DNA from: a virus
Virus record (IMG/VR): IMGVR_UViG_3300010885_014692
Span: 1 to 47,734 of that record
Direction: 5' to 3' (one strand)
DNA length: 47,734 nucleotides
Shown: positions 3,102 to 27,860 of the stretch, in pieces
Layout: each line of letters begins with the position of its first letter
Position numbering within the stretch: position 1 is the first letter of the stretch
Position numbers and translations under genes: made by a program
Notes under the pieces: generated by a model
Databases searched by the model: none
What the model saw: only the letters and a program-made list of their open reading frames with translations
What the model was told of the DNA's origin: nothing

Positions 3102-4065
3102 TGGTAAATATGTAAGCTCGTCATATATAATGAATGAGCTTTTTCGTGATTTTAAATCCTATGACTATCAACTACAAGTAGCTGATGTGGTACAATGGAT
3201 TGGTGATGGCTTACGTAGGTTAAAACAACCAAGGTATTATGTAGATAAACTAACTGATGGTAACTTAGCTTTAAACCATTTACCTCTGATAGATATAGTT
3301 GATGGTAGAGGAGAGTTACCTTATGACTTAATATCTATTACTCAAACAGCTCGTGCTGAAGAAAGAAGAAGTCCATTTAATCCTCCTTACGTATTAGCAG
3401 GTATAGCTTACTATGATATAGAAACAAATACTGAATGTACTCTAGGAGATGGTTCAGCCCTGTGTAATCAATTTACAAACTGTAATTGTCAGATAGGTTC
3501 AGACCAAAGGTGTCAAGGTTGTTGTAAAGATTCACCTTGTACTACATTAACTTTACACCCAATGCGTTGGAATACTCATACATTCTTTAAAGGTTACCAT
3601 AATTGTGACTTAGATGTAAGAGCTACTTCTGACCTTACTTATACAGTAAATAACAACTATATATTTACTTCTTTCAAAGAAGGTAAAGTATGTATGGCAT
3701 ACAGAGCTGTACCTCTAGATGAAAATGGGTTACCTCTAATACCTGATACACAGAGTGTTATAGAATACTTAAAATGGTTCTGTGCTGAAAAGATTGCTTT
3801 TAACTTATTTCTTACTGATAAATATACAGAAACTAAATTAAGCTACTTTCAAGCTAATCATCAGTTATGGTTTAGAAAAGCAAGAGCTGAAGCTAAAATG
3901 CCTCAATCAATGGATGAATGGGAATCAGTTAAAAACTCTCGTGTTAAACTACTTCCAAGATTCTTTGAGCACGATTCATTCTTTGGTCACCTACAAACTC
4001 CTCAACAAATTTGGAACCAACCAAGAAGTGTTGCATTAAATAACCCTGTAAGTAGATTATTATAA
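3094..4065 (+). CDS. Putative tail stabilisation/ring protein (head-tail connector)
   Basis: 323 residues. The opening (YVSSSYIMNELFRDF, then VADVVQWIGDGLRR) is the helical start I associate with crAss-like ring/tail-stabilisation proteins, sometimes compared with P22 gp4. The middle (about 115-155) is Cys-rich (CNCQIGSDQRCQGCC, then C), which might bind metal. A helical C-terminal part (about 230-290) follows. It directly precedes the large tail-tube gene, to which it is joined by TAATG (stop and start share base 4065). The ATG at 3094 was kept because it gives the conserved N-terminus. The structural role is likely; the exact ring number is not known. Confidence 0.6.
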   Translation: MYNGKYVSSSYIMNELFRDFKSYDYQLQVADVVQWIGDGLRRLKQPRYYVDKLTDGNLALNHLPLIDIVDGRGELPYDLISITQTARAEERRSPFNPPYVLAGIAYYDIETNTECTLGDGSALCNQFTNCNCQIGSDQRCQGCCKDSPCTTLTLHPMRWNTHTFFKGYHNCDLDVRATSDLTYTVNNNYIFTSFKEGKVCMAYRAVPLDENGLPLIPDTQSVIEYLKWFCAEKIAFNLFLTDKYTETKLSYFQANHQLWFRKARAEAKMPQSMDEWESVKNSRVKLLPRFFEHDSFFGHLQTPQQIWNQPRSVALNNPVSRLL

Positions 4066-7000
4066 TGGGAGAATATATAAGGAATACATTTGATAAAGGT
4101 TTAAATAAAGACTTAAGCAAGGGTAAAACTTCTAACAACACAATGTTAGAGAACCTCGGCTTTAATGTAGTAACTGAACTTGGTTTATCTACTTTAGCTT
4201 TAGAAACTCCAAAGGGTAATAAATACTCTTTTGAGATACCTGATACATTTAACATTTACAAGATTACTATAAATGTATTACCTTCTACAAGTGTAACAAC
4301 AACACTAAGCATAAATGGGCAGGGTGTAAATATTACTATGTCTACAGCAACAGACATAACTGAACTATTTGCACAAATGCAAGCTTTTACTCAAGTAGGG
4401 TATAGAATACAACGTGGATTAAACTTTATTTATGTAATAGGAACTACAAGTAATCCTGTTATATCTTCTACTATGTTTAATACCAATGGTTCTCTAACCT
4501 TACTTTTAGATATACCTGCACAAACTGATTTAGCTATTATAGGTTGGAAACAGATAAGAGATTCCATAGCTATACTTACTACAAAGAAAACTAATACAAC
4601 TCCATATTTAGACCCTCTAGGTAATGTATCACAAATATGGAAACTAGATTATAATGATGCAACAGATACAGTAATATCACCTAATGGTACAGCATTAAAC
4701 TGTATAGACCATTTATATTATAACCAACGATTAAACTTATCTTTAGAACATGCCATATATAGAGAAATTGAAGGCAGGTATGAAAATCAAGACACACAAA
4801 GAATTTATTGGACTGACAATTTTAACTATCCAAAATCATTCAATTTTAATCTGGAGAATACTTTCTGCATTCCTGTAGGACAGTTAGATTGGAAATCTTC
4901 AGTTGATTTATCTATACCTATTATACAAAACATTATACCTAATTCAGGTTCTTTACCTGTAGGTAGAATAGGGTATTTATATCAACTACAGAATGAAGAT
5001 GGTTCTTTAACACCATTCTCTGATGTAAGTAATCTAATAGACCTTACTGATTCTAATTTATCTGAAACCTCACAACAATACAAAGGAGCTATATCAGGTA
5101 CTCTTTCTAATAAATCAGTAAGATTTACTATAAATACTATAGACCAACATTACGCTATAATTATATTAGCTTATGTAATATACCAACAACCTAATGTACC
5201 TGAGTTTTATAAATTCAATGAATTTCCCATAAGTGGGCCTTCAATGACTTTTGTGCATACAGGTAATGAAGCAGAATCTGCATTATCTTTAGAACAAGTA
5301 ATAAATCCAAACATACAGTTTGATACTTGTAAAACATTGACTTACAAGTACAATAGGTTATATCCTGCTAATACTACTACAAAGAACTTTAAAGTAGATT
5401 ATGATTCAAGAGCTTATAGGTATTGTGGTGTACCACCATATAACTATGCTTATGATAATACAGGCTCACCTATAGCTAGAGTATACTCACAAGATGGTAG
5501 ATATAAACTTATCAATACCAACTTTAAGATATACAATGTTAATGGTACAACTATAACTCCACAAGATGTAGCTGATACAGAAGACTTAGTAAATGCTTAC
5601 AATGATGAATCAGGTTCTATCTTTGGACTAAGTACTACTAATGATGTAAGTGATTGGGAATACAAACAACAATATAAGTTTCAGAAAGATGGGCTTACAA
5701 TGGGAGGTTCAGGTAAGAATATTTCTTATAAGTTTATCTTTACAGATTTACCTTGCGACTTTGTACAACCACCAGCAAATAACTCACATGGAGGAGTAAA
5801 TAGTGGCCCTGTATATTCTCCAAGAGCTACAGACTTTGTAAATATACCTCAAGGACTTAATACTAACCCCATTAATCTAGGAGTAGCAGGACAAGATTAC
5901 CCTCAACAAGGTTATGCAAACTTAAAATCTCCTACAAGAGCTTCTATACTAAAAACATTTGCTCGTGGAGAAACATACAGAGCAGGTATAGTATTTAGAA
6001 ATACCAAAGGAGAGCAATCATTTGTAAATTGGATTGGAGATATACGTATTCCTGAAGCTACTGATAATAATACAGTAAGTTTTACTAAAAACTTTGACTT
6101 TTCTATGGGTAACCATAAACCATTTGGAGGATTAGAATTTCTACAAGTAAAAAGTCTTGGTATAGAATTTACTGTAAATACAGCAATACTACCAGATGAT
6201 GTAACTGCATATCAATTAGTATTTGTACAAAGGACTTTAGAAAACAAAACTAGATTTGGTACAGGAATACATTTACCTGTACTAAGAATGGATGCCTCTA
6301 ATGGTCAAAATAGAAATCAACTAAAAGTAAACGGAGACCTTACAAAAGTATATACACTAGGTGTTTATAAAGCAAGTACTAATGCGGACTATTGGAATCA
6401 TTACGCTATTAGAGAAGATGGTACAACAAGTGGTGGTGGAGGGGTTTCTTTTATAAGAAGTGGACTATTTAGCGTACAAAGTACTACAGATTCTGAAAAT
6501 AATAGATTAGGAGTTATTCGTTCACCAATGAATGATGCTCAAATACCTCTTACTAATGCTTCATATATTAAACTACATGAAGTGTGTACAATGTATGAGT
6601 CTCAATATTTTGCAGCAAATCCTGGTAATGGCTTAGCAGAATGTTATGGGTATTTTTTAAAATACAAAGCTAGTAGATGGCCTTCAAAACAAATACGTAA
6701 TTCAATATTAGCAAGACAAAATGTTACTATTGATGGTATTGTAAGTAGATCTATTGCTCCTACTGTAATGAATTATGACTTTCATAATGTAGTAGTAGCT
6801 AATGATGGAGGTACTCAAGGTAAAATCTCAGGATTAGGACAAACTTCTGAATTTATAGTAACTGCTGAAATAGCTCCTAATACCACACTAAATAATTATA
6901 GTACATATAATGGATATGCATCTACAGATTATAATGCTTTTCCATTTACTCCTTTTGATGATGCTTCTTTTGCTCCAGGAACTGATGATGCTGATGATAA

Positions 7001-8645
7001 CAGAGGTGTACCAAAATGTAACTATAGGTTAGTACAATATTGTACATTTAATATAGGACAGTATGGTGGGCCTTGGAGAGCCTCTAGATATAACAATGAG
7101 TATATATCATATGGAGAGTTTGTACCAAGAGCTTTATCTAGTAATACATTACAAACAATACAACAGTATGGAGATACTTGGATAGGTTTATATTCTGCAA
7201 GTTATTTTGCTTTTCCTTGGATGAATGATTACAAGGTACCTAGTAGAGGTGGAGTAGGTTCTGGTTTAGGCAATATATATGAGGCATCAGACCATATGAA
7301 ACAAGCTGCAATAGTATTCCCCTGTGAATCTCCCATAAATGTAGATTTAAGATATGGTAAATTCTGGGCAGCAGATCAAGTTACACAAAGTAATGATATA
7401 GATTCATTTGCACCATTTCAGTTTGATGAGAATTTGTATAACTATGCTTATGACCAACAGAATAATGCTAAGATATTTATACCTGAACCATTTAACAATA
7501 GATTTGAAGAAGAACAACCTCATAGAGTATGGACTTCACAAAACAAACTAGATGGAGAAGTAGTAGATTCTTGGAGAATATTCAGAGTAAATGATTATAA
7601 AGATTTAGAAGGTACATACGGACAGATAAACAAAATAGTAAACTTTAAAGATAGGCTTATAGCTTATCAAGATAGAGCTGTAGGTTGGGTACAATCAGAA
7701 GAAAATTCTGCATTAAGAACTACTGACACACTTGCAGCTCAAATAGGTACAGGTGACATATTGACTAGGTATCAATACATATCCATTGAATCAGGTTCTA
7801 TACATCAACATTCTGTAGTTGTAGCTCCTGATAGTGTACATTCATTTGATGCAAGGTTAAGGAAGTATATGATATTACAAAATACAAAAGAAGGTACAGG
7901 GTTAAAGCCCTCTTCAGATGTAGAAGGATTATCAGCTTTCTTCCGTGAGAATGTATATGGGCCTATACTACAAACAGACCAAGTACTATTAGGTATAGGT
8001 ATACATGGAGTATATGATACTAAGTACAACAGATGTTTTATGACTTTCCTTAATATAATAAATGATGATAAAGGAAAGACAACTAAAAAGTTTACAACTG
8101 TATACAATGATTTACTACAAGCTTTTGAGAAGCATGAACCCTTTGTACCTAACATATATTTAAATACAGGTAAAAGACTGTTATCTGCTAGACCAAATAC
8201 TTTAGATAAAGTATATGTACATTCAGTAGGTAACTTCCTAGAGTACTATGGTAGTTACTATCCAGCTACTGTTACATTCATTTGTAAGTTCCCTGATGAA
8301 ACTAACTTATTGACTGCCAGAGTAGATACATTAGAATTTTGGTCAGAGGTATTTAATAATGCAGGAGTAAACTTACCACTAGAATCAGTTACTTCAATAA
8401 AAATGGAGAATGATTATCAATCTACCTTTAATTCTTTGAACCCTTTAACAAATTCTACGTTAAAGCGAAGAGAAAGAACTTGGAGAGTATCTCATATAAA
8501 GGATTACACTCCACCTTATAACAATGTAAAGATAAAACCATATCTTCGTGATAAGTATGTTAAAGTAACACTTACATTTAACAATCCTCAACATAGATTA
8601 GTTTTACATGATATTAATACACAAATTACTAAATCTTACCATTAA
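4065..8645 (+). CDS. Large tail tubular/'muzzle' protein (P22 gp10-like)
   Basis: 1526 residues, rich in Asn, Thr, Tyr and Gly, with almost continuous beta-strand-like sequence. The N-terminus (FDKGLNKDLSKGKTSNN, then MLENLGFNV) is typical of phage tail tube/stabiliser proteins that assemble as beta-propellers. In crAss-like phages the very large protein in this position forms the distal tail opening and is compared with P22 gp10. There is no signal peptide or membrane segment. It is joined to its neighbours by TAATG at both ends (4065 and 8645), so expression is probably coupled to the ring gene and the cargo gene. Residues near 380-600 and 900-1100 look domain-like, but I cannot define boundaries. 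Confidence 0.7.
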   Translation: MGEYIRNTFDKGLNKDLSKGKTSNNTMLENLGFNVVTELGLSTLALETPKGNKYSFEIPDTFNIYKITINVLPSTSVTTTLSINGQGVNITMSTATDITELFAQMQAFTQVGYRIQRGLNFIYVIGTTSNPVISSTMFNTNGSLTLLLDIPAQTDLAIIGWKQIRDSIAILTTKKTNTTPYLDPLGNVSQIWKLDYNDATDTVISPNGTALNCIDHLYYNQRLNLSLEHAIYREIEGRYENQDTQRIYWTDNFNYPKSFNFNLENTFCIPVGQLDWKSSVDLSIPIIQNIIPNSGSLPVGRIGYLYQLQNEDGSLTPFSDVSNLIDLTDSNLSETSQQYKGAISGTLSNKSVRFTINTIDQHYAIIILAYVIYQQPNVPEFYKFNEFPISGPSMTFVHTGNEAESALSLEQVINPNIQFDTCKTLTYKYNRLYPANTTTKNFKVDYDSRAYRYCGVPPYNYAYDNTGSPIARVYSQDGRYKLINTNFKIYNVNGTTITPQDVADTEDLVNAYNDESGSIFGLSTTNDVSDWEYKQQYKFQKDGLTMGGSGKNISYKFIFTDLPCDFVQPPANNSHGGVNSGPVYSPRATDFVNIPQGLNTNPINLGVAGQDYPQQGYANLKSPTRASILKTFARGETYRAGIVFRNTKGEQSFVNWIGDIRIPEATDNNTVSFTKNFDFSMGNHKPFGGLEFLQVKSLGIEFTVNTAILPDDVTAYQLVFVQRTLENKTRFGTGIHLPVLRMDASNGQNRNQLKVNGDLTKVYTLGVYKASTNADYWNHYAIREDGTTSGGGGVSFIRSGLFSVQSTTDSENNRLGVIRSPMNDAQIPLTNASYIKLHEVCTMYESQYFAANPGNGLAECYGYFLKYKASRWPSKQIRNSILARQNVTIDGIVSRSIAPTVMNYDFHNVVVANDGGTQGKISGLGQTSEFIVTAEIAPNTTLNNYSTYNGYASTDYNAFPFTPFDDASFAPGTDDADDNRGVPKCNYRLVQYCTFNIGQYGGPWRASRYNNEYISYGEFVPRALSSNTLQTIQQYGDTWIGLYSASYFAFPWMNDYKVPSRGGVGSGLGNIYEASDHMKQAAIVFPCESPINVDLRYGKFWAADQVTQSNDIDSFAPFQFDENLYNYAYDQQNNAKIFIPEPFNNRFEEEQPHRVWTSQNKLDGEVVDSWRIFRVNDYKDLEGTYGQINKIVNFKDRLIAYQDRAVGWVQSEENSALRTTDTLAAQIGTGDILTRYQYISIESGSIHQHSVVVAPDSVHSFDARLRKYMILQNTKEGTGLKPSSDVEGLSAFFRENVYGPILQTDQVLLGIGIHGVYDTKYNRCFMTFLNIINDDKGKTTKKFTTVYNDLLQAFEKHEPFVPNIYLNTGKRLLSARPNTLDKVYVHSVGNFLEYYGSYYPATVTFICKFPDETNLLTARVDTLEFWSEVFNNAGVNLPLESVTSIKMENDYQSTFNSLNPLTNSTLKRRERTWRVSHIKDYTPPYNNVKIKPYLRDKYVKVTLTFNNPQHRLVLHDINTQITKSYH

Positions 8646-11500
8646 TGGGAAAGTATACTAAGATAAGTAAAAAGAAATATGCAGACGGAGGCCCTATAAA
8701 AGGTAAACCGAAACCTGCTATTATAGTCAATGATCTTAATGACCCAAGGTTACTAGCTTATAATGATAGTTTAAGTTTGTATAATAGATTTCCTGAACCG
8801 CCAAAAGGATATAAAGTAGACCCTTATGTAAGAAGTGAAACAGCGCAATTTGTGGTAGGTAAAGATAAATATGGAAATGATATAGTAGAAGAAAGACCAA
8901 GCATAAAAGATGCTATAGAACCTATAGGATTAACTTTACATGGTTCAAATAAGAGTGGTAAAGCATTTAATAAGTCTACAGGTAGATATGAAGATTTTTT
9001 TGGTACTATGCGGCCTGTTTATAAAGAGCCTACTTTACCTATAGAATATATACCTAAACCTGTAGATACAGTACAAGGAAGAAATATACCTACTCCTCAA
9101 TCTCCAAGCAATCCTATACCTGTAGATGATATTCAGTTATATTCTGCCCATCAAAACTTAGCTAATGCAGGTAAACCTGTAGGTTATGTAATGGAAGATG
9201 GTAAGAGGAGAGATATAATGGCAGATGAATATAATGCAATTATGGGTAGCTCCGTACAAGGAGGTACTAAACTAGAAAATACTAATTATGCAATGGGTGG
9301 AATGATTAAACGTAAAGATGGCTCATATTCTAAACGAGGCTTATGGGATAATCTGAGGGCTAACAAAGGTTCAGGTAAAGCTCCTACAAAAGAAATGTTA
9401 GAACAAGAAGCTAAGATTAAAGCTGAATATATGTATGGTGGAGAAATGCCAGATATGTATGGTAAAGGTGGATATATAGTTAAAAGGTCACACGATAGAA
9501 AAGGTAAAACTCACGTAGTTATAGGCCCTGATGGAACAAAGAAATACTTTGGTGATAGTAACTTAGGTCAACATCCTAATGACCCTGCAAGAAAGAAAGC
9601 TTTCTATGCCAGACACAAAAAGAACTTAGCAGGTAATCCTTACTTTAGAGCATTTGCTAGAAAGACTTGGGCTGATGGGGGTTATATGGATGATCCTAAA
9701 AACAATCCAACTAATACTTTAGAGGGAGATTTAATTTCTAAGGTGCTTATGAATAGAAATAGAGATAAAGATTTTGTTCAAAGAGCTTATGCTGTAGGAG
9801 ATTATCCTAACTCTAATATGTTTACTTCACCTGACCCTGATAACTTTGGTTCTAGAATGACACATAAAATGGAGTGGGGAGAAGATAATAAAGGACAAGC
9901 TTATATGTATCCTTCTGTAATGAATCCTAAAAATGAAGATATAAAAGTACCTATTCAATATGCAAAATATATATCTTCTGTAGGTTATAAAAAAGCTACA
10001 GGAATGCCTTATGCTATGGGCGGTACAATGAACCAAGCTCAGATGCTTAATCAAGCTAAAATGAGAGTTGGTAGTGATGCTCCTGATGGTTCAGTATGGA
10101 AAGATATAGGTGCAGGTGCTTTTGGTGTACTAGAAGGTACATTAGATACTGTTACTATGGGTGCTACTGATAAACTTACAGATGCAGCATACAAAGGATT
10201 ACAGAAGATAGGTGGTTCTGATGCTTCTCAAGTAAGGCAGCAAGACATGATTCATGGGTTTAGTAGTATAGGAGGAGCTGCAATAGGTGCAGCAGTAAAT
10301 CCTGCAAGTGGTATGACTGCTATAAGCCAAGGAGTTAAAGGGTTAGGTCAAGGAATAGGAAATATAAATGAAAATACACAAGGAATAGGTAATGCTATTT
10401 CTGGATTAAGTAGTTTAACAGGTTTAATACCTTCAGGTGGAGGTAACATAGGTAGTAATGGAGAACAAGAAATTGCAAATATGGCAGCAAGTATGAAAAT
10501 GGCACAAGGTGGCTTAATGCACATCAATGAAGGTGGTACACACGAACAAAATGCTTTAGGTGGTGTACCTATAGGCCCTAATGCTTTAGTAGAGCAGGGT
10601 GAAACTATAAATAATGACTTTGTATTTTCTGATAGGTTAAAACCAAAAGGAAGTAAAAAGACTTATGCACAGTTATCTAAATCTGTAGATACTAAATACA
10701 GGTTACGTCCTGATGATAAACTTTCTAAAGAAGCTAAACAGATGGATTTAGATAGATTAGCTGCTGCACAAGAAGCTCAGAAAGATGAAATGTCTACTAA
10801 GTATATGCAGAAAGCAATGGCTTGCGGTGGAAAGATAAAAGGTTTTGGTGGTCAAATAATGGGCCCTATATCTCAATCTATGAATGTTACTAATGGTCAG
10901 AATACACTATTAGCTATGGGTGGAAATCTTCCTAACTATGATTATGGAGATGATGGAAACATAAGAAGAAGCCCTTATAATAACATAGTTAATGGTGTAG
11001 ATAATGGCATTAACAATGTTAATTACCGACCTAGCAATGATGTAATATTTAATGAACGTATGAAAAGAGATGGTTTTAATCCAACTTTAGAAGACTATAA
11101 TAAAGTTGTATTAAGGCAACAACAAGCAGCTTATGGTGGTAGCTTGATGAGTAACTTTATGGAGAAACCTCCTGTATATCAAAATCCTGCAAATCAATAT
11201 GCAGGTGGCGGATATATGAATAACTATTCAGACCAAGAGTATGATGCTAGTCCTTTAATTATGGCTGAAGGTGGTAAATGGATTCAAAAAGCAGTTAATC
11301 CTGCACATAAAGGTTATTGTACTCCAATGACCAAATCAACATGTACTCCACATAGAAAAGCTTTAGCTATGACTTTCAAAAAACATCATGGATTTCACGA
11401 AAAAGCTATGGGAGGGTACTTAGAAGGTAATGAATATGATTTGGATGAAAATGAAATTAATACTTTAATAAAACAAGGATTTGAAATAGAATATGTCTAA
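8645..11500 (+). CDS. Gly-Gly-motif virion/cargo-type protein with a DUF5754-like segment
   Basis: 951 residues, modular and largely low-complexity. About a dozen short motifs of the form xxGG followed by a bulky or polar residue (YAMGG, YMYGG, WADGG, MAQGG, MACGG, LAMGG, YAGGG, MAEGG) are spread along the chain as if joining segments. Residues about 275-340 (IVKRSHDRKGKTHVVIG, YFGDSNLGQHP, FYARHKKNL) resemble the DUF5754-type domain of some phages and large viruses. Residues about 500-600 are Gly/Ala-rich and weakly hydrophobic. Near the C-terminus come WIQKAVNPAHKGYCTPMT and LDENEINTLIKQGFEIEYV, short modules often found at the ends of Bacteroidota phage virion proteins. Its position suggests an internal or ejected virion protein. 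The HNH gene overlaps its end by eight bases. Confidence 0.6.
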   Translation: MGKYTKISKKKYADGGPIKGKPKPAIIVNDLNDPRLLAYNDSLSLYNRFPEPPKGYKVDPYVRSETAQFVVGKDKYGNDIVEERPSIKDAIEPIGLTLHGSNKSGKAFNKSTGRYEDFFGTMRPVYKEPTLPIEYIPKPVDTVQGRNIPTPQSPSNPIPVDDIQLYSAHQNLANAGKPVGYVMEDGKRRDIMADEYNAIMGSSVQGGTKLENTNYAMGGMIKRKDGSYSKRGLWDNLRANKGSGKAPTKEMLEQEAKIKAEYMYGGEMPDMYGKGGYIVKRSHDRKGKTHVVIGPDGTKKYFGDSNLGQHPNDPARKKAFYARHKKNLAGNPYFRAFARKTWADGGYMDDPKNNPTNTLEGDLISKVLMNRNRDKDFVQRAYAVGDYPNSNMFTSPDPDNFGSRMTHKMEWGEDNKGQAYMYPSVMNPKNEDIKVPIQYAKYISSVGYKKATGMPYAMGGTMNQAQMLNQAKMRVGSDAPDGSVWKDIGAGAFGVLEGTLDTVTMGATDKLTDAAYKGLQKIGGSDASQVRQQDMIHGFSSIGGAAIGAAVNPASGMTAISQGVKGLGQGIGNINENTQGIGNAISGLSSLTGLIPSGGGNIGSNGEQEIANMAASMKMAQGGLMHINEGGTHEQNALGGVPIGPNALVEQGETINNDFVFSDRLKPKGSKKTYAQLSKSVDTKYRLRPDDKLSKEAKQMDLDRLAAAQEAQKDEMSTKYMQKAMACGGKIKGFGGQIMGPISQSMNVTNGQNTLLAMGGNLPNYDYGDDGNIRRSPYNNIVNGVDNGINNVNYRPSNDVIFNERMKRDGFNPTLEDYNKVVLRQQQAAYGGSLMSNFMEKPPVYQNPANQYAGGGYMNNYSDQEYDASPLIMAEGGKWIQKAVNPAHKGYCTPMTKSTCTPHRKALAMTFKKHHGFHEKAMGGYLEGNEYDLDENEINTLIKQGFEIEYV

Positions 11501-18300: not shown

Positions 18301-21300
18301 ACTTCAAACACTAGATACACAAGAAGCAACTCTTATGGAATTGGGAGATGCTGTTGTAGCCAAAGTAAATGCTCTGCAACAAGAGATGATTTTATTTAAA
18401 TCTAATGATTATGAGTTAGAAGAAAGAGTTAATGACTTGTTAGAAATGGCTAAAGAACCATTTGTACAGGAAGCTATAGATAATCTTAGGGCTGAAAAAC
18501 AACTTCTTCAAGAAACAAAAGCTAGTTTAATAGAAACTCAAAAGTACTTAACCAGTCTTTTTGATATGGCTTCTACAGAAACAGATCTTCAGAAGTATTT
18601 AGATGAAATAGAAGAAATAGACAATACTCTAAATGCATTAGATGAAGAACTAGCTGCTTTAAATTCTGAAATAGCTGATTTAAATAAACAACTACTTAAA
18701 CCTGAATTTGTAGAAAGAGCTGCAATATTACAGACTTTTATAAATCAAATTATAGAAGACGCTAAATACACTCAAACAGAAGATAAAAAACCTGTTGGAG
18801 CAGAACCTATTGAAGAAACAGAGATAAAAGTTAAATTTACAGATTCAGCTGCAAAACCTATTACAACAGGATTTTTTACTACAGCTTCTTCTCAAACAGA
18901 TACAAAAGATGTTGATAGAGAAGACCCTCGTACTGTACGTTGGTTTAAATACATAAATGAAACCCCTTTAAAAGAGCTAAAAGATAATCATAAATTACTT
19001 GTATTTAATAAGAACTCAGGAATTGATGAAGCTAAATTAGGTGAAACCCCTGTAGATACTCAAGGAGAATACTTAGATAACTATGTAATGATTACTGACA
19101 AAGATGGTAATCCTATAGAAGTTAATGGATTGTATGTATGGTCACCTTTACATAAACCTGATAGAGATAAAAGTAAGTTTTCTTACCCAAAGAAAGAAGA
19201 TGGTACTTCTTTTACAGAAGAAGAAAAACAAGAAATGTACAACCAAGCTCAGAAGAAATACATTGAGTTTGTAAATAAAGTAAGTACTGAAAAAGTATTA
19301 TTACCTATTACTAACAGAAGTATAGGTATAAATAAATACAAGACAGGTAATACAATACTAGCAGCTACAGGTGAAGATGTTAAAAGTTTACCTCTAGTAG
19401 TAGCTACAAGCACTAAAGACAGAGTAGTTTCAGTAGAATTAGTTCAACAAACTGTACCTAATGTACCAGTAGGAACTGTAGTAACTGAAACTCAACGAGG
19501 TGACTACTTAGTTGTAAATCAAAATAATCTAAGCCAACAAGATGCTGAAGCTACGTATGAGTTAATTAAACGTATTGTAGATGGAGAAACTAAAATAGAT
19601 GGTAAAGATTTACGTGCTATCCTAGAAAACATTATATTTGTAGGTAAGACTAAAAGCCCTTATTCTTTCTTCTTCTACCCAAACAAAGATGGTGAAGGTA
19701 AAGGAGGTATTACAATGGGTGGAAAATCTATAGCTAAAGATTTAATGGAAAGTCAAAAAGAAGAGATAATAAACTTCTTAAAAACCAAGAGGTACAATGT
19801 AAATAAAGCTTCTTTAGAGAAAGCTCAGAAGAGCCTTAATTCTAATAAGCCTGAACCATTCTTTATGCCTAAGTTGACTGAAGCAGGGTTAGACTTTGAA
19901 AAGTATGAGTCATACAAACATTTCTTAGTGGATTCTTCTGTGAGAAGTTTAGATTCAATGCCTTTAACTGTATATGCACCTAACTTAGGTGAGATAGGTA
20001 ATAAGAATAAGTACTTAACTTTTACTGAACCAAAGAAAGAAACTAAAAAGAAAGGTAAAACAGCACCAATTGGAGAAACAGTATCTATTGGTGAAATACT
20101 AGGTAATGAAGAAGAAGCTCCTACAGAAGTTGCACCTCAAGATAAAATAGCTGAATACAGAGCACAAGAAGAAGAAGAAGTTAAAAAGATTATACCTAAC
20201 ATTGAAGATTATAAAGTTGATGGTGTAATTAATAAAGACAAGGTATTAGAGGGGATAGAAGAAAGAAAGAAAGAAGAATTAAAACAATTTGGGACAAGTG
20301 AAAAAAATACTGCTAAAAACAATATAAAAGTTTTGGGGGTAGATGAGTTTGTTTCAAGAGATTTAATGGAACTGGCTTATTCTAACGATAGTGGTAATAA
20401 TCCTATACTTGGAGGAGGGGGACAAACTTTAGATAAAATCATTGAAAGAGGCGGTTATTCTAAAGAAGAATTAGGTAAACTTTTAAAAACTGAAATAAAT
20501 AAAATTGAAGCTAAATATAAAGCTCAAACAGATGCTTACAATGAAATATATGATAGGTATAATAAGTTAATAACAGGAGCTGCTAAAGGTACTTCTACTG
20601 AAGTTGGTACGGAAGAAATAATTTCTACAACTCCTGAACAACTTAAAAAAGATGTTGCAGCTCTTTTAAACAAAGCTTTACAAGAATTAAAAGAAGCTAA
20701 TGCTACTGGAAAGCATTTTATTTTAGGATTTCATGGAGGTAGAACCTTTGATAAAGCGGATAGAACTAAACAATATACAGGAGAGTTTAGAAACTTTGAA
20801 ACTAGAAGGATAGCTGAATCAGCAGGTGCTAGATATGAAGGAGAAATGTTATTCTACACTGAAACTATAGATGAAGAAGATACATTTACTTATGAACAAG
20901 CTGTTAATGGAGCTACTGGATATGCAATTAAATACGGAGATGATACTCCCTCAATTCAAGCTTACTTAATACCTTTAAATGTAGCAAATTTTACAAATAG
21001 AGGTTTAGGAGAAGTTGGTGTTACTTATGATGATATTGAAGCTGATAGAATTAGAAAAATAGGTAGTGTAGATTTTACAAGAAAAATAGTTACAAAAAAT
21101 ACTACAGAAGCTCCTGTTACTGCCTTAGAAAAAATACAAGAACAGTATTACAAAGACAGGAAAGTTAGTGGGTATAGTAAATTAAACCATGCAACACCAG
21201 AAGAGTTTTTAAAACATCTTAAAACAACAGCAAAAGGTACTGATGGTAAAGCTAAACTAGCACAAGTAGCTTTAGAAGAGTTACAAAAGCTAGAAACTAA

Positions 21301-21493
21301 AGAAGAGCTTCCTTCGTTAGAAGGTGTTCAAGCTTTAGAAGATATACTACCTTCAGTAACAGTAAGTGAAGCAGATAGAGCAGAAGCAGTAGCAGGATTT
21401 GATAATTTCTATGGAGGATCTGCTGGAGTTTCCACTCCAACTTTAGCAGAAGCAAAAGAAGCAGAAGAAAAATGTAATGGTAAAGTAGGATAA
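15371..21493 (+). CDS. Giant ejected virion/cargo protein with hydrophobic patches, a long coiled coil and a possible ART-like C-terminus
   Basis: 2040 residues. Near the N-terminus, 165-200 is Gly/Ala-rich and hydrophobic (NFGFTVGTAAGAYATGG), and a second patch lies at 455-487 (LGVLIGALGLPVN); both could insert into membranes during ejection. Residues about 897-1120 form a long charged heptad-rich coiled coil. Residues about 1180-1520 look globular and contain a dense beta/alpha segment. The C-terminal 1774-1913 contains FHGG (H1788), GEMLFYTET and AYLIPLNV, in an order loosely like ADP-ribosyltransferase folds; this is weak. It directly precedes the virion RNA polymerase gene, with a 25-base A-rich leader between them. 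It is likely packaged and ejected together with the polymerase. Confidence 0.6.
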   Translation: MADGKPISFLDASNLKNSSRKAELVTDNSYIPAVTVEGPEYDLYKTASGKYGEFNPLEISPAALLDKNQSRLDTWANGIAQFTSKAGTSFINAVGGLEVSSMNWLAQGVTRGGDWNASDFTMDPLTQGLHAFDQKITDMFPVYQDPAEAEQPWYNQLNTADFWAGNVLPNFGFTVGTAAGAYATGGIGLTGMALKGTKTASAIANAGKATSRAIGRALKTGEQGINELRALGASEDLARGINTISQQAYTGKGLIAKQVLGSGIAAVGEAKFEAVGTYEETYRDLIGKGVDEATADEYAKKAANVDFMLNLPVLTMSNFVQFGKLFSTGKTLKNPVANFIKGNYSQGFATKNLQSFISRKLVSAPKWLQKTAKVAGTLGTTFKNSAWEGFEEWAQYQGNKVAKNYSERIRTGWDSGMGAQMNGVIGIMSATGEELGGVVEDVASLDPARIFGGEGGENFMLGVLIGALGLPVNTKGDFAGGIIGAFQDSKKEDQRVSQRNAFATDVVNNLNAMREKYGKNKTLRDALVSQSFSADAIEALEKGDFSTFKAMEALGIAHDVLTAAEAGQGDLFTDILNSSDPIIASEVRDHVRQNLKEGQVDPLANLTDEEIESKVTENKENLKKNIALIKKINSYVSPLNGITPELSKQITGKLFLVKDIENRMADVIRGLDSTLDLIRPKDPEEAAIFNEQVNEFFNPNNIKETLANVASNKDVADFEANVLNKVTELMKKGVLDQNEASDMASALFDLSRNSKLRKDTLEQYSKIAAEPEKYNEWVEQKIAESSVDQELTKIVGKTITDEYRNAGIDVPENIFDVEEGKFYGKMGNQTVTITKEKGKEPVIKVKGEPVSAANFLAMTKLNEFTPLSQAKYDEFAAIKLEQKAKEEARILTVAKFEGVINKFRAEVEKYAKQIDKVKELRKGFQERLADRQQMIKEAKDELAALYKNKNKFKKGNIPVLEALLEDINKDIAFVEEQLQTLDTQEATLMELGDAVVAKVNALQQEMILFKSNDYELEERVNDLLEMAKEPFVQEAIDNLRAEKQLLQETKASLIETQKYLTSLFDMASTETDLQKYLDEIEEIDNTLNALDEELAALNSEIADLNKQLLKPEFVERAAILQTFINQIIEDAKYTQTEDKKPVGAEPIEETEIKVKFTDSAAKPITTGFFTTASSQTDTKDVDREDPRTVRWFKYINETPLKELKDNHKLLVFNKNSGIDEAKLGETPVDTQGEYLDNYVMITDKDGNPIEVNGLYVWSPLHKPDRDKSKFSYPKKEDGTSFTEEEKQEMYNQAQKKYIEFVNKVSTEKVLLPITNRSIGINKYKTGNTILAATGEDVKSLPLVVATSTKDRVVSVELVQQTVPNVPVGTVVTETQRGDYLVVNQNNLSQQDAEATYELIKRIVDGETKIDGKDLRAILENIIFVGKTKSPYSFFFYPNKDGEGKGGITMGGKSIAKDLMESQKEEIINFLKTKRYNVNKASLEKAQKSLNSNKPEPFFMPKLTEAGLDFEKYESYKHFLVDSSVRSLDSMPLTVYAPNLGEIGNKNKYLTFTEPKKETKKKGKTAPIGETVSIGEILGNEEEAPTEVAPQDKIAEYRAQEEEEVKKIIPNIEDYKVDGVINKDKVLEGIEERKKEELKQFGTSEKNTAKNNIKVLGVDEFVSRDLMELAYSNDSGNNPILGGGGQTLDKIIERGGYSKEELGKLLKTEINKIEAKYKAQTDAYNEIYDRYNKLITGAAKGTSTEVGTEEIISTTPEQLKKDVAALLNKALQELKEANATGKHFILGFHGGRTFDKADRTKQYTGEFRNFETRRIAESAGARYEGEMLFYTETIDEEDTFTYEQAVNGATGYAIKYGDDTPSIQAYLIPLNVANFTNRGLGEVGVTYDDIEADRIRKIGSVDFTRKIVTKNTTEAPVTALEKIQEQYYKDRKVSGYSKLNHATPEEFLKHLKTTAKGTDGKAKLAQVALEELQKLETKEELPSLEGVQALEDILPSVTVSEADRAEAVAGFDNFYGGSAGVSTPTLAEAKEAEEKCNGKVG

Positions 21494-21518: not shown

Positions 21519-24500
21519 ATGAGCTTGTGCCCAAACTTATCAGACCCAATAGTAAGTAAACAATTTAATGAACTTGTAGCAGCTACAAATACAGATATAG
21601 CTTATCTTATTTGGGATTTGAATGGAGGAAACTTCTTAGATAAAAATCCTGATGGTTCTAATAATCCAGCATTTAGTATATTAGCTACTAAAGTAGGTAA
21701 GTATAACGCACTTAAAGAAGTAGGACTAGCTCTTGTTGATAGTAATAAAGCTAAAGGAATTAAAACAGGTGTACAAGAACTATTTGATTCTAATCCTGAA
21801 TTAGCTAAGATAGGTACACAACAGCAATACTCTCAATACCTTGATAGTATATTTCCTAATAGCAAGGTAAAAGATATTGTTTATAGAAATACTAATAAAG
21901 ATTTATCTACTTTTTTACCTTCTGAAGAAACAAAAGGAATATATTTTTCAGGGGATTTAAAAGAAGTTGCTCAATATAACGGTAGAAGACAAAAAGGTGA
22001 ATCACAAATTTATGCAGTAGTTCTTAATTTAAAAAACCCAAAAGAATATAGAAAAAGATATGGAAGTTCTGATACAAGATATACAACTTTAGAAGAAACT
22101 ATTTCTCAGGGTAATGACGGTTTGATGGTAACAGGAAGGGAAGGAAACATAAATGAAGAACTTGCAGTTGTAAATTCTAATCAAGTTCATATATTAGGAA
22201 CTCAACAGGACATAGAAGGATTTAAAAAGTTTGTAGTAACCAAATCTAAACCAGCAGAAATAAAGCCTACAATGTCTCCTGCTATACTAGATGCTTCTGT
22301 AAAAACAGCGCATTTAAGATTAATGAGTGTTGTTATTGGAGAAAAAGGATTGCTAGGTGCAAGAGATTTAATTACAACCTTTCCTTCATTAGATGCATAT
22401 AAAGCAATATTAGGCCCTATAGCTAAGTTTTATACACAAGATGAGTTACGCCAAATATACAATGGAAATAAGAAATACATAAATTCTTTTATAGCTGAGT
22501 TTGAAAAGCCTATAGAAGAAAATACAACAGGTAAAAACAGTAGTGACTATGTTGATAGTAATAAGATAAGTCCTGATGAACTGGCAAGCTATACTGTAAA
22601 ACTAGCTTTATCTGCATTGCCTGTAACAGATTCTAATGGGCAATGGATAAAACATGATGAAAAGAAACTTGAGGGGTTGCCAATAGGAACTAACTATAAA
22701 GAGTCTTTGGATTACTTACAAAAGAAATTAGCTAATACTTTTTCTTACGAAGCTCAGAATAAACTATTTAATGAAGCACTTTTAAAAAGACCTAATCTTA
22801 GATTCCTTAATCAATGGTTTAAGTTTAATGAAGAAGTAACAACTAAAGATGATTTACTGCTAAGAACAGCATTCTTTAATACATTTGCTAAAGCAGATGT
22901 ACCTTTTATTATTGCTGTACTAGGTAAAGAGTTTAGATCTTTTACTCCTAAAACTTCACGAGAAGAGGACTTTCTTAAAAAATGGGAGTCTAATATGATT
23001 AACTCTCCTGTAGTTACTTTTGATGAAAAGCAGAATACCTATGTACTTGATGTAAAGAAACTAAGACAGCTAACAGAAACTGAATCACAAGGAGCTACAA
23101 CTAAAAAGATAACTACTAATTACTATGAGTTTTTAAAACTACTTGGTTATCCTGAAAATATTAAAACATTAACCAGTTCTTCTGCAATGGAAGATGTTAG
23201 GTTTATCAAAAGTCAATTAACTGAAAATATTCCAATACATGAGTTCTTTGATAAAGAAGGATTAAAGATTAATAAAGAACTATTAGCAATTACTAATGCT
23301 GCTATAGAAGCTTCTGATGTACAAGAACCTATATCAATAAAAGATAATAATAACAACAACAGAAACTCTATAGGTATACCTACTGCTTTACATTTATTAG
23401 TAGACCAATACAAAAGAGGGGGGCTAGAATACTCTTTAATAAACAACATCCCTAATAATAAGATGTTAAAAGAGATACAAGCAGGTAATGTAGAGATAGT
23501 AAACCTAGCTCAATATAAAAATGATAATAATATAAAACAAGACTTTGATAGTCTTGATGAAAGTGGTATGGCTGAAGCCTATGCTAATTTTCTTTTGGAT
23601 GATATGTATCCATATTTACCTTCAGGTGATAGGAGTAGTGAGTATGCATTCAGAGTAAAATGGTCTCACGATAATTTACCCACCATAAAGAATTTGATGG
23701 GTGTAATTAAAGATATTAATGGGTCTGTAGTTGAACGAGATAAATTAATAAAAAAAGAAGAAGAAAAGACTGGTAAAAAAGCAGTACTAACCCAATATGG
23801 GCTCCCTTTATTTTTTGGTATAACTAATGAATCTCAACTAGAAACTAAGATTGCTGAAGAAGCAGCTAGTATTAAACAAAACTTTGAAAGGTTAGGACTT
23901 AAAACAAAAGGTGTAGACTTTAATGAAATAGCTTTAAGATATTGGTATTCATTTACTCAACAAGGACAATTGTTTACAGGTGATGTAACTAATTTTAAAG
24001 ACCCTTTTAAGAGGTTTACTTTGTTTACCTCTACTCGTACTGCAATGATTAATGATCAGGCATTTAACGATACTTTAAATAAGTTATACCCTAGATTAGA
24101 TGGTAAGAAAGCTGATGGCTACGAAAAAACCATAGTACTTACAGACCCTACAAGTGACTTTCCTGAAATGGAAAAACAGTTTAATATATCTGCACAAGAC
24201 TATAAAGACCAAAAAGAAATATTTGATGCAGCAGGAGCTGTAACTATAGATGCTTACAGAGAAATAATGATTAAGTCTGATAAGTGGAATGAAGATTGGG
24301 ATACTTGGTATGATTATATGACTATGAAGTCAGATAAAAGACCTAGAGTAGCAGGGCCTATATTAAAGACTATATATAGTGGGCCTTTGTTTGACGAGAA
24401 TAATGAAGCTCCTAACAATGTGTATATACCTGCTGCATACAAATCAGCTTACAAAGTATTAGCCCCTCGTACTAATAATGCAGTAGAGCAAAAGATGTAT

Positions 24501-27500
24501 GATAAGATGGTAGCTAAACAGATAGGTATAGCTCTATTTAAATCAGGTAGTAAGCTACAGAACCTTGCTTTGCAAGATATGAATGCTGAAGAATACACTG
24601 AAACCCAAAATATAAGTTATGATTATATGGGCTTCAACTTAGATACATCAGGGGAAGAACATTTAAATGTAACCTTTGGTACTCAGTCAGGTAAATTACT
24701 TACTGTAGATTTATATGGTAAGAATGCTCCAACTACTTTAAATACAAGGAATGGTGTTAAATCTAAAGATGAGGTAATAAATAGTTATAACACCCACATA
24801 CAAGAATTAGATGCTTTACGCAGAAAAACATTTTTAGAGAATATAGGTGTAGTAGTAAATGCAGAAGGTAATTTAGAAGTAAGGGATGGTAATTATGATA
24901 GGCTTATATCTCGTATAGAACAAGGTTTATTAGCTCGTAATACAACAAGTGTTACTGAATATCAGGTAAAAGAAATACTACGTAGCAAAGAAAAGCTTGT
25001 AGATGCCTTAGCTGAAAAAACTAAGTTTGAAAATATGATTATGTCTATATTTAATTCAGATGTAGTCAAAAGAAATATGCCTGGAGAAATGTTAGTACAG
25101 GTTCCTGACCTTACTGGAGAACTTAAATTCTATACAAAGAATGCTAAAGGCTATACTAACTTATCTGAAATAAGAATTACTTTACCAAAGAAACTTGTAC
25201 CTTACGTAAAAACATTGGAAGGTAAAAATTTCTCTGAAAAATTAGTTACATTCAACACAATGATAGCTGAAGGTAAAGTAGATAAAAGAATACTTACTTT
25301 AGTACCTTTCAGGATACCTTCACAGTTACAAAATGCAATAGAAGCTGTAGAAATAAAAGCTTTCTTAGACCCTGCATTAGGTAATACAATGGAAGTACCT
25401 GCTGGTATAACTGTAAAAGTAGGATCTGACTTTGACGTAGATAAACTGACTACATACATGCCTAACTTTGCTATAACTAAAGATGGCTTAGAGTATGTAA
25501 CAGAACCTAAAGATTCTTCAAAGCTAAAAGAAAAACTATCCGAATTAAAAGAAAGTTTAAAACTAGCAACTATAGGTAAAGCAGATGTTTTAAACAGAGA
25601 AGAAAGAGAAAGACTTGAAATATCAGATACAGAATATATAGAACTAGTAGAGTTTTATACTAATCAAATAGATGAAATAGAGCCTGAACTACAAAAACTA
25701 ATAGATGAGGTAAGGTATTTAAGTGCTTTTTCCACAAAGAAAGTATTGGAAAATAAAGTAATTGAAGATTTTATAGATATACTAACAAGTGAGGAACTGC
25801 AAGAAAACTTCCTTACTCCTGATAGTACTGATGTTTTAATGTCACTAGGTTCTGAGATTAATAATATCTACCAAAAAGAAAAAATAGACAAAGCTGATAA
25901 TACAGCTAAACTATCTTTTAACAATGTAATTAAAACAAGGACTAACCTTCTTAGGTTTAAATCTCTTGTTGGGCAAGCTGCACTGGCTGCTACAAGTCAT
26001 TCTTTAGCACAAAAAGCAGGACTTACTTATTCTAACCCTGCGCTAAGAGGTATTTATTTTACAAGTGTTCCTGAAGGAGATGTAATAAGCTTAGATTTAA
26101 TTAAAAATCCAGTAGACAGTATAAAACCTTCAGACATTTTTAAACAGTTTATATCATCTTCAGTTGACGTATCTAAAGAAGGTAATGATTTTCTTGTTAA
26201 TGCTAATGTTAATGAACGTACATTCCCTGTAATACAAGCTTTAATAAAAGCAGGTGTACCTCTTAGAGATGTTATGTATTTTATTAATCAACCAATACTA
26301 AGAGAATTACAAGAAAAGCTAGACAGAAATGACTCTATAGCTAACTTAGATAAGCAAAAGCCAAGTCAAGTTGCAAGAGAACTGATGAATAGCTACGGGT
26401 TAAATAGATATTATTATAGTCTAGATAAAGTAGATGATTTAACAAGATTTAGCACTTCTGAATTAAAAGGAATGCTTACTACTACTCCTATAGAAAATCT
26501 TACTGAACTACAAAAGAAAAAACAAACTGAAATATTATATCAGTACGAAATGTACAGAAAGACTATTGCAGCAGATATGAGTGAGCTGCAGCAAGTAACA
26601 GCAGTAGATACTAAACAAGGAGGTAAATCACTTGCTGAGAACCTTATACGCATGAAGAATGCAAAAGCTTTAAATGATAAAGGAGTATTTGGTAACTTAG
26701 ATAAGATGTTTTCTGAAACCATTTTGAAAGAACAAAAAGAGGGTGCAGAAATGGCTTATAAATTATGGCCCAATGTATTTAAGTTTGCCTTGCATAGTAC
26801 AACTAATGGCATTGATTTACTAGACGAGTTTTTTAAAGATTTTGATAATGCTTTAACTACAAATAAAATAAATGCTTTAGAAACACTAGATAGATTTTTA
26901 ACTGCTTACATACTACTAACTAATGGAGTAAAAGGAAAAGCTTCAATAGGTAGTTTCTATACAAGACTTATAGAAAAAGGAGAAGCTGTAAAAGAGCTTA
27001 TCAAGATGAAAGAAAAATATCCTGAAAATCCTGTAATAAAGCAGCTAGTACCTATGATGCCTGATAATGAAAGAACTACTTACAATATAAAGTTATTTAG
27101 CAGAGATTATAGTGCGTATGAAAAAGAAACTTTAATACAAGGGTTTGAAGAACTTATGGTTGCTGAACCTGAGTTTGGTAAAAAGCTTATTATGCAACAA
27201 CTTTTACAGTCAGGTGTATCTTCTTCTATGAGTAGCTATCAAGATATATTACCAAAGGAATACATAAATGTTACTAAAGATAGGTTAGCTAATTTTGCAT
27301 TTGACCCAAAACAAGTAATAAAAGAGTTTTATGAAACTATGTGGAAAAACCCAAACGTATTAGAGGCTAAGTTTATAGGAGGGTACAAAGGGGGAAAGCT
27401 ATATCGTAAAAACAATGCAAAATATTTAAGTATTGTAGCAGGAGAAAAAGTAAATGGTAAAAATAAAAAGTACTTACTTAAAAATACAGGAGATACAGAT

Positions 27501-27860
27501 GCAGAAGGAAATAATATATTTGTTCCTGTAGCTTTAAAAAGTAACTATCCTTATGGTATTAATATAGGTAGTATAAATATGAATCGTGGCTCTGATTTAT
27601 ATATACCACAAGCTTCTACTACAACTACAGAAGAAAGTGATTCTCCATTCATTGAAGGAGATTCAGAAATTATGAGTACCTTTACTAAAGTAGATAAAGC
27701 AATAGAAGATGCTTGGAATAGTTTAAGTATAGACCAAATGAAAGACCTTGAAAAAAGAAAAGGTATAAAATCACTTCAAGATTTTGAATCTGCTATTACT
27801 GATATGATAACAGGAGGTATGACACAAGAAGAAGCATTAGAAGATATAAAAGAATGTTAA
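21519..27860 (+). CDS. crAss-like virion DNA-dependent RNA polymerase with N-terminal ADP-ribosyltransferase-like domain
   Basis: 2113 residues. The catalytic signature is SDFDVDKL, with D1304, D1306 and D1308 as the magnesium-binding DxDxD motif. It is preceded by FRIPSQLQNAIEAVE and VKVGSDFDVD, the arrangement known for the virion RNA polymerase of crAss-like phages (studied in phi14:2, about 2180 residues), a two-barrel enzyme related to eukaryotic RNAi polymerases. It would be packaged, ejected and used to transcribe early genes. Residues 1-60 form an N-terminal module common in Bacteroidota phage virion proteins (NELVAATNTDIAYLIWDLN). Residues about 118-240 look like an ART fold: VYRN (R123), GIYFSGD (S144), VVLNLKNPKEY and EELAVVNSNQVHILG (E213/E214). 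The polymerase call is firm; ART activity is inferred. Confidence 0.9.
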   Translation: MSLCPNLSDPIVSKQFNELVAATNTDIAYLIWDLNGGNFLDKNPDGSNNPAFSILATKVGKYNALKEVGLALVDSNKAKGIKTGVQELFDSNPELAKIGTQQQYSQYLDSIFPNSKVKDIVYRNTNKDLSTFLPSEETKGIYFSGDLKEVAQYNGRRQKGESQIYAVVLNLKNPKEYRKRYGSSDTRYTTLEETISQGNDGLMVTGREGNINEELAVVNSNQVHILGTQQDIEGFKKFVVTKSKPAEIKPTMSPAILDASVKTAHLRLMSVVIGEKGLLGARDLITTFPSLDAYKAILGPIAKFYTQDELRQIYNGNKKYINSFIAEFEKPIEENTTGKNSSDYVDSNKISPDELASYTVKLALSALPVTDSNGQWIKHDEKKLEGLPIGTNYKESLDYLQKKLANTFSYEAQNKLFNEALLKRPNLRFLNQWFKFNEEVTTKDDLLLRTAFFNTFAKADVPFIIAVLGKEFRSFTPKTSREEDFLKKWESNMINSPVVTFDEKQNTYVLDVKKLRQLTETESQGATTKKITTNYYEFLKLLGYPENIKTLTSSSAMEDVRFIKSQLTENIPIHEFFDKEGLKINKELLAITNAAIEASDVQEPISIKDNNNNNRNSIGIPTALHLLVDQYKRGGLEYSLINNIPNNKMLKEIQAGNVEIVNLAQYKNDNNIKQDFDSLDESGMAEAYANFLLDDMYPYLPSGDRSSEYAFRVKWSHDNLPTIKNLMGVIKDINGSVVERDKLIKKEEEKTGKKAVLTQYGLPLFFGITNESQLETKIAEEAASIKQNFERLGLKTKGVDFNEIALRYWYSFTQQGQLFTGDVTNFKDPFKRFTLFTSTRTAMINDQAFNDTLNKLYPRLDGKKADGYEKTIVLTDPTSDFPEMEKQFNISAQDYKDQKEIFDAAGAVTIDAYREIMIKSDKWNEDWDTWYDYMTMKSDKRPRVAGPILKTIYSGPLFDENNEAPNNVYIPAAYKSAYKVLAPRTNNAVEQKMYDKMVAKQIGIALFKSGSKLQNLALQDMNAEEYTETQNISYDYMGFNLDTSGEEHLNVTFGTQSGKLLTVDLYGKNAPTTLNTRNGVKSKDEVINSYNTHIQELDALRRKTFLENIGVVVNAEGNLEVRDGNYDRLISRIEQGLLARNTTSVTEYQVKEILRSKEKLVDALAEKTKFENMIMSIFNSDVVKRNMPGEMLVQVPDLTGELKFYTKNAKGYTNLSEIRITLPKKLVPYVKTLEGKNFSEKLVTFNTMIAEGKVDKRILTLVPFRIPSQLQNAIEAVEIKAFLDPALGNTMEVPAGITVKVGSDFDVDKLTTYMPNFAITKDGLEYVTEPKDSSKLKEKLSELKESLKLATIGKADVLNREERERLEISDTEYIELVEFYTNQIDEIEPELQKLIDEVRYLSAFSTKKVLENKVIEDFIDILTSEELQENFLTPDSTDVLMSLGSEINNIYQKEKIDKADNTAKLSFNNVIKTRTNLLRFKSLVGQAALAATSHSLAQKAGLTYSNPALRGIYFTSVPEGDVISLDLIKNPVDSIKPSDIFKQFISSSVDVSKEGNDFLVNANVNERTFPVIQALIKAGVPLRDVMYFINQPILRELQEKLDRNDSIANLDKQKPSQVARELMNSYGLNRYYYSLDKVDDLTRFSTSELKGMLTTTPIENLTELQKKKQTEILYQYEMYRKTIAADMSELQQVTAVDTKQGGKSLAENLIRMKNAKALNDKGVFGNLDKMFSETILKEQKEGAEMAYKLWPNVFKFALHSTTNGIDLLDEFFKDFDNALTTNKINALETLDRFLTAYILLTNGVKGKASIGSFYTRLIEKGEAVKELIKMKEKYPENPVIKQLVPMMPDNERTTYNIKLFSRDYSAYEKETLIQGFEELMVAEPEFGKKLIMQQLLQSGVSSSMSSYQDILPKEYINVTKDRLANFAFDPKQVIKEFYETMWKNPNVLEAKFIGGYKGGKLYRKNNAKYLSIVAGEKVNGKNKKYLLKNTGDTDAEGNNIFVPVALKSNYPYGINIGSINMNRGSDLYIPQASTTTTEESDSPFIEGDSEIMSTFTKVDKAIEDAWNSLSIDQMKDLEKRKGIKSLQDFESAITDMITGGMTQEEALEDIKEC

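What the first reader, a model, noticed from the sequence alone, without database searches (positions are those of the whole stretch)
21840..22245. ADP-ribosyltransferase-like domain at the N-terminus of the virion RNA polymerase
Residues about 118-240 show VYRN, GIYFSGD, VVLNLKNPKEY and EELAVVNSNQVHILG in the order of the 'polyvalent' ART domains found in phage and plasmid multidomain proteins. Candidate catalytic positions are R123, S144 and E213/E214. In the same ORF, DFDVD (1304-1308) marks the crAss-like virion polymerase. A packaged polymerase carrying an ART could modify host proteins, such as host RNA polymerase or defence factors, at the moment of entry. I do not know of this fusion having been studied biochemically.
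Basis: partly seen in the sequence, partly recalled or inferred. Interest (0 to 1): 0.75.

Follow-up and report, generated by a model that had tools for sequence, protein, structure and literature searches.

The report
ADP-ribosyltransferase module on crAss-like virion polymerase
A crAss-like phage carries, at the front of the RNA polymerase that its relatives pack into the virus particle, a small domain folded like an ADP-ribosyltransferase, an enzyme type that chemically tags other molecules; the domain is a real and widely shuffled member of a known phage family, but its exact activity is untested.

Summary
ORF 21519-27860 (2113 aa) is a crAss-like virion RNA polymerase (vRNAP): DFDVD at residue 1304, related to phi14:2 gp66, downstream of crassvirus muzzle and cargo-1 genes. 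Residues about 82-240 match Pfam ART-PolyVal (E 5e-7 to 3e-6, just under the curated cut-off). AlphaFold2 gives a confident model (pLDDT 89.6, pTM 0.85) whose solved-structure matches are mostly PARPs, the ParT toxin and other ARTs. A leave-one-out profile scores 171 bits. Across 81 relatives the strand-1 position is H (70) or R (11), the second residue is Y142 rather than S144, and the third is E214. This is an H-Y-[EDQ]-type ART with H changed to R, so activity is uncertain. At least 23 vRNAP ORFs carry the module, before or after the polymerase core. The nearest vRNAP relative (36% identity) aligns only from residue 252, just past the ART, and lacks it: a swappable front module. ART fused to the unrelated N4-type vRNAP was published in 2017. 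I found no paper describing it on the crAss-type vRNAP. New variant of a known kind; delivery is inferred, substrate unknown.

The parts
21519..27860 (+). crAss-like virion RNA polymerase ORF, 2113 aa, with N-terminal ART module
   Evidence: ORF; phi14:2 gp66 homology 817-1606; DFDVD 1304-1308
21519..21704 (+). N-terminal 'CPNL' leader domain, residues 1-62, shared with the ORF after the giant vRNAP gene in Suoliviridae
   Evidence: tblastn; profile hits mostly at ORF N-termini
21762..21866 (+). ART preamble, residues 82-116 (IKTGVQELFDSNPELAKIGTQQQYSQYLDSIFPNS), three helices in the model
   Evidence: alignment; model
21867..22238 (+). ART-PolyVal core and C-terminal helix, residues 117-240
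   Evidence: PF18760; AF2 pLDDT 89.6; Foldseek
21885..21887 (+). R123, strand 1, position of the family histidine (H in 70, R in 11 of 81)
21942..21944 (+). Y142, strand 2, candidate second active-site residue
22158..22160 (+). E214, first residue of the fifth core strand, candidate third active-site residue (E/Q most common in the family)
22272..27365 (+). region shared with the nearest vRNAP relative that lacks the ART (residues 252-1949)
   Evidence: 36% identity, E 1.3e-241, starting at residue 252
25428..25442 (+). DFDVD catalytic motif of the polymerase (1304-1308)
   Evidence: aligned with GSDFDIDK of phi14:2 gp66
4065..8645 (+). crassvirus muzzle protein gene (places the vRNAP in the virion/cargo block)
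   Evidence: PF25731 E 4e-112
8645..11500 (+). crassvirus cargo protein 1 gene
   Evidence: PF25725 E 6e-21

Best explanation
Residues about 82-240 are an ADP-ribosyltransferase-fold module of the ART-PolyVal family (H-Y-[EDQ]/HYD2-type, not R-S-E) fused to the front of the crAss-like virion RNA polymerase. It most likely rides inside the virion with the polymerase, is ejected with it ahead of the phage DNA, and in the host cell uses NAD+ to modify host molecules (host RNA polymerase or defence proteins are plausible) while the polymerase starts early transcription. Shown here by computation: family relationship, predicted fold, fusion, purifying selection on a relative's fused copy, and repeated shuffling of the module. 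Inferred from relatives: packaging and ejection. Not shown: enzymatic activity (strand-1 H is R here) and any substrate.
For: PF18760 match; leave-one-out profile 171 bits. AF2 pLDDT 89.6 and pTM 0.85, with R123 in strand 1, Y142 in strand 2 and E214 opening the fifth core strand. Foldseek PDB matches of probability 0.87-0.98: PARP4 with NADH, PARP1 with an NAD+ analogue, ParT and other PARPs, plus the cyanophage A4 pre-ejectosome at rank 1. BFVD matches include ART-PolyVal proteins, an N4-type vRNAP of a Roseobacter phage, and cr130_1. Muzzle and cargo-1 genes upstream. crAss001 virions contain gp47/gp49/gp50 by mass spectrometry (PMC10172136); phi14:2 gp66, the homologous polymerase, was annotated from virion MS/MS. 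cr85_1 carries ART-PolyVal at the C-terminus of a protein annotated as like crAss001 gp47 (75.8 bits). dN/dS about 0.15 between the vRNAP-fused copies L032/L035. 23 vRNAP ORFs carry the module.
Against: The strand-1 histidine, 70/81 in the family, is arginine here, and the third position is loosely conserved, so activity may be reduced, altered or lost. The Pfam score is marginal. Foldseek TM-scores to solved ARTs are only 0.3-0.4, and no PDB hit has E below 0.001. The window's own virions have never been studied, and no substrate is indicated. Purifying selection was measured on relatives, not on the window's copy.
Confidence: 0.66

Rival explanations
1. The module is an ART-fold relic: because the catalytic histidine is arginine it no longer transfers ADP-ribose, and at most binds NAD+ or another nucleotide, or serves as a spacer or partner-binding domain.
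For: H to R at strand 1 in 11/81 members including the window; two R-type members (L045, L066) have also lost the GxYF strand-2 motif.
Against: The position is only ever H or R in 81 sequences, which suggests constraint rather than decay; Y142 and E214 are kept in the window; the domain is predicted to fold well. R is an active-site residue of the R-S-E clade of ARTs (PMC5512222).
Confidence: 0.24
2. The ART acts on the phage's own cargo (the polymerase or its partners) or has a structural role in ejection rather than acting on host targets.
For: It is covalently tied to the polymerase or to neighbouring transcription-block proteins; the top solved-structure match is a chain of the cyanophage A4 pre-ejectosome (E 1.9e-3).
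Against: Stand-alone ART ORFs of 185-204 aa exist (L025, L029, L030, L039), and position relative to the polymerase is not conserved, which argues against a fixed structural partner. The cyanophage chain may simply contain an ART domain.
Confidence: 0.08
3. Chance resemblance; no ART domain.
For: Sub-cut-off Pfam score on the whole protein.
Against: Leave-one-out profile E 3.6e-52 against a best shuffle of 9.5 bits; 17 of 26 members of the relative set match PF18760; confident model with ART matches.
Confidence: 0.01

Closest known systems
ART domain fused to N4-type virion RNA polymerase (Roseovarius Plymouth podovirus 1, CBX87992.1), prototype of polyvalent-protein ARTs (Iyer et al. 2017, PMC5512222)
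   Same: Same ART-PolyVal type: a tblastn of the cr130_1 domain reaches this phage's vRNAP. Both are fused to a virion-packaged RNA polymerase.
   Different: N4 vRNAP is a T7-type single-subunit polymerase (general knowledge), unrelated to the two-barrel (DPBB) crAss-type enzyme. The window has R instead of the described strand-1 H.
ART-PolyVal in Suoliviridae (cr130_1, cr10_1, cr4_1, cr56_1) and in Steigviridae cr85_1
   Same: PF18760 match of 42-89 bits in cargo/transcription-block proteins; in Suoliviridae preceded by the same CPNL leader as in the window.
   Different: There it sits on the ORF after the giant vRNAP gene, or on a crAss001 gp47-like subunit, not on the polymerase ORF. In Suoliviridae the preamble is FKxWFGDW instead of ELFESNPELASIGT.
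phi14:2 gp66 and crAss001 gp50 (crAss-type vRNAP)
   Same: Homologous polymerase with the DFD[VI]D motif.
   Different: No ART-PolyVal match anywhere in those genomes.
T4 Alt (packaged R-S-E ART that modifies host RNA polymerase)
   Same: Functional analogy: an ART carried in the head and injected (PMC5512222).
   Different: Different ART clade (R-S-E), and a separate protein rather than a polymerase fusion.

Membership tests
ART-PolyVal (PF18760) | profile match at the curated cut-off | tested here: inconclusive
   28.6-31.0 bits against 31.2; 31.3 summed in the own-genome search; 17 of the 26 aligned members match the family
ART-PolyVal (PF18760) | ART fold | tested here: met
   AF2 pLDDT 89.6; PARP, ParT and ART-PolyVal structural matches
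ART-PolyVal / Tox-ART-HYD2 clade | histidine in strand 1 | tested here: not met
   R123 in the window; H in 70/81 relatives
ART-PolyVal / Tox-ART-HYD2 clade | tyrosine in strand 2 | tested here: met
   Y142
ART-PolyVal / Tox-ART-HYD2 clade | acidic residue in strand 5 | tested here: met
   E214 opens the fifth core strand of the model; the published clade residue is D, here E
   R123 is H in most relatives; the S144 position is T/S/A and more
crAss-like virion RNA polymerase | DxDxD motif and homology to phi14:2 gp66 | tested here: met
   DFDVD 1304; 24% identity over 817-1606, E 2e-25
crAss-like virion RNA polymerase | present in the virion | not testable with these tools
   Only by homology: phi14:2 gp66 annotated from virion MS/MS; crAss001 gp50 detected in virions
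Polyvalent protein (Iyer 2017) | several unrelated activities in one delivered polypeptide | tested here: inconclusive
   ART fold plus polymerase in one ORF; delivery and ART activity not tested
Active ADP-ribosyltransferase | NAD+-dependent transfer | not testable with these tools
   needs biochemistry

The most novel reading that the evidence does not exclude
The crAss-type two-barrel virion polymerase has repeatedly and independently gained ART modules, paralleling the unrelated N4-type vRNAP, so that polymerase and host-modifying enzyme enter the cell as one chain. The arginine variant at the histidine position would be a functional alternative active site with changed chemistry (transfer or NADase).
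Probability: 0.3. Interest if true: 0.72.

Novelty: new variant of a known kind. Interest (0 to 1): 0.5.

Why it matters
crAss-like phages are the most abundant viruses of the human gut, and how they take over the cell at entry is little known. An ART carried on the injected polymerase would give a concrete, testable first strike, and its recurrence on two unrelated virion polymerase types (N4 and crAss) points to selection for coupling host modification with first transcription. The natural H/R split at the catalytic position offers a ready comparison for ART chemistry.

Tried and rejected
R-S-E assignment: rejected after aligning 81 relatives. Sequence search against the PDB: nothing for the whole protein and only chance matches for the profile. 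PHROGs: no informative match for the vRNAP; scattered unnamed families for ART relatives. A broad five-sequence alignment was too diverse to scan with. A suspected second ART at the C-terminus of the upstream ORF (window 20663-21118) was modelled from two sequences only and came out at pLDDT 45.7, so it stays a lead. Whether the R variant goes with polymerase fusion: no (4 of 23 fused against 7 of 58 others).

Full report
What is in the window. The record is a 47.7-kb virus contig. Pfam finds a crassvirus muzzle protein (4065-8645, E 4e-112) and a crassvirus cargo-1 domain (8645-11500, E 6e-21), so this is a crAss-like phage. ORF 21519-27860 (2113 aa) lies downstream in the same direction. It carries DFDVD at 1304-1308 and aligns with phi14:2 gp66, the catalytic subunit of a virion RNA polymerase, over residues 817-1606 (24% identity, E 2e-25), and more weakly with many other crAss-like polymerases.

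The ART. PF18760 (ART-PolyVal) matches residues 120-199 with E 2.8e-6 on the N-terminal 320 aa and E 5e-7 on the domain alone, a hair below the curated cut-off; the own-genome search places it just above. Relatives were collected from IMG/VR and GTDB genomes (189 relatives reported in one scan). Seventeen of a first 26 aligned members (window included) match PF18760 on their own and one matches PARP. A profile built without the window scores it at 171 bits, and at 62 bits without the conserved preamble, against a best of 9.5 bits for 200 shuffles. AlphaFold2 with 69 sequences gives pLDDT 89.6 and pTM 0.85. Foldseek against the PDB returns a cyanophage A4 pre-ejectosome chain, then PARP4 with NADH, PARP1 with an NAD+ analogue, ParT, tankyrases and, lower down, diphtheria toxin (probabilities up to 0.98, but E not below 0.0019 and TM 0.3-0.4). 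Against viral models it returns ART-PolyVal proteins with E down to about 1e-6, including an N4-type vRNAP of a Roseobacter phage and crAss-like cr130_1 and cr4_1. The fold claim is therefore well supported.

The active site. Across 81 relatives the strand-1 position is H in 70 and R in 11, never anything else. The strand-2 position is Y142 (Y 40, F 22, others), and S144 is two residues on at a T/S/A-rich position. The third position is E214 (E 28, Q 12, T 10, others), and Q222 is nearly invariant. In the model R123 lies in strand 1, Y142 in strand 2, and E214 opens the fifth core strand. This matches the H-Y-D configuration published for polyvalent-protein ARTs (PMC5512222), with H replaced by R and D by E. 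The R-S-E reading is not supported. Whether the R form is active is open.

Mobility. The nearest polymerase relative found (G011, L127; 36% identity) aligns from residue 252 onward, directly after the ART; no ART was found in its 53-kb record with the family profile (the record may be a fragment), and its polymerase is preceded instead by a different N-terminus with a HEAFH zincin motif. In a polymerase tree the window and L127 are sisters at 100/100, and N-terminal, C-terminal or absent ART needs several changes, at least three forced by well-supported branches. At least 23 vRNAP ORFs carry the module. It also occurs alone in ORFs of 185-204 aa. In Suoliviridae it sits on the ORF that follows the giant vRNAP gene, behind the same CPNL leader as in the window, and in cr85_1 at the C-terminus of a crAss001 gp47-like subunit. 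phi14:2, crAss001 and cr108_1 lack it. Two closely related fused copies show dN 0.048 and dS 0.317, i.e. purifying selection.

Delivery and function. [quoted passage not shown] phi14:2 gp66 is annotated from virion MS/MS. Packaging of the window's protein is inferred from this. Transfer of ADP-ribose to host targets is inferred from the family and from T4 Alt (PMC5512222) and is not shown.

Novelty. ART fused to the N4-type vRNAP was described in 2017, and the same ART family is found in those proteins by tblastn. Searches of open papers for crAss with ADP-ribosyltransferase terms found nothing on the subject, but subscription papers, including the phi14:2 polymerase structure paper, were not readable here. 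UniProt-derived names already call the domain ART-PolyVal-like in cr130_1 and cr116_1. I therefore rate this a new variant (crAss-type polymerase, R at the H position) of a known kind.

Noticed in passing
window 20663-21118 (C-terminus of ORF 15371-21493): FHGGRTFDK ... GEMLFYTE ... YAIKYG ... IQAYLIPLN pattern reminiscent of a second ART; in L124 (82-84% identical) it is fused directly ahead of a zincin motif and further transcription-block sequence in one ORF. The model from two sequences was unreliable (pLDDT 45.7).
   Followed up: partly
window 21519-21704: N-terminal CPNL leader (about 60 aa) found mostly at the very start of large crAss-like ORFs next to or on the vRNAP; a possible packaging or ejection signal.
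   Followed up: partly
L013:8783-22924: 4713-aa ORF combining a zincin motif (HEILH), ART, a SLOG/DprA-like segment (by eye), vRNAP (DFDVD) and a second zincin motif (HENLH).
   Followed up: no
G002 (record of L018): Four PF18760 matches in one phage record.
   Followed up: no
window 40345-42453 (-): 702-aa protein with a GHKL/HSP90-like ATPase domain (PF13589, E 8.6e-8).
   Followed up: no
L066:9001-9519 and L045:9001-9516: R-type ARTs in which the GxYF strand-2 motif is missing, possibly inactive versions.
   Followed up: no
L127 (minus strand): Downstream of the vRNAP core in the same ORF lies a helicase-like segment with a P-loop (GRGGTGKTT), by eye only.
   Followed up: no
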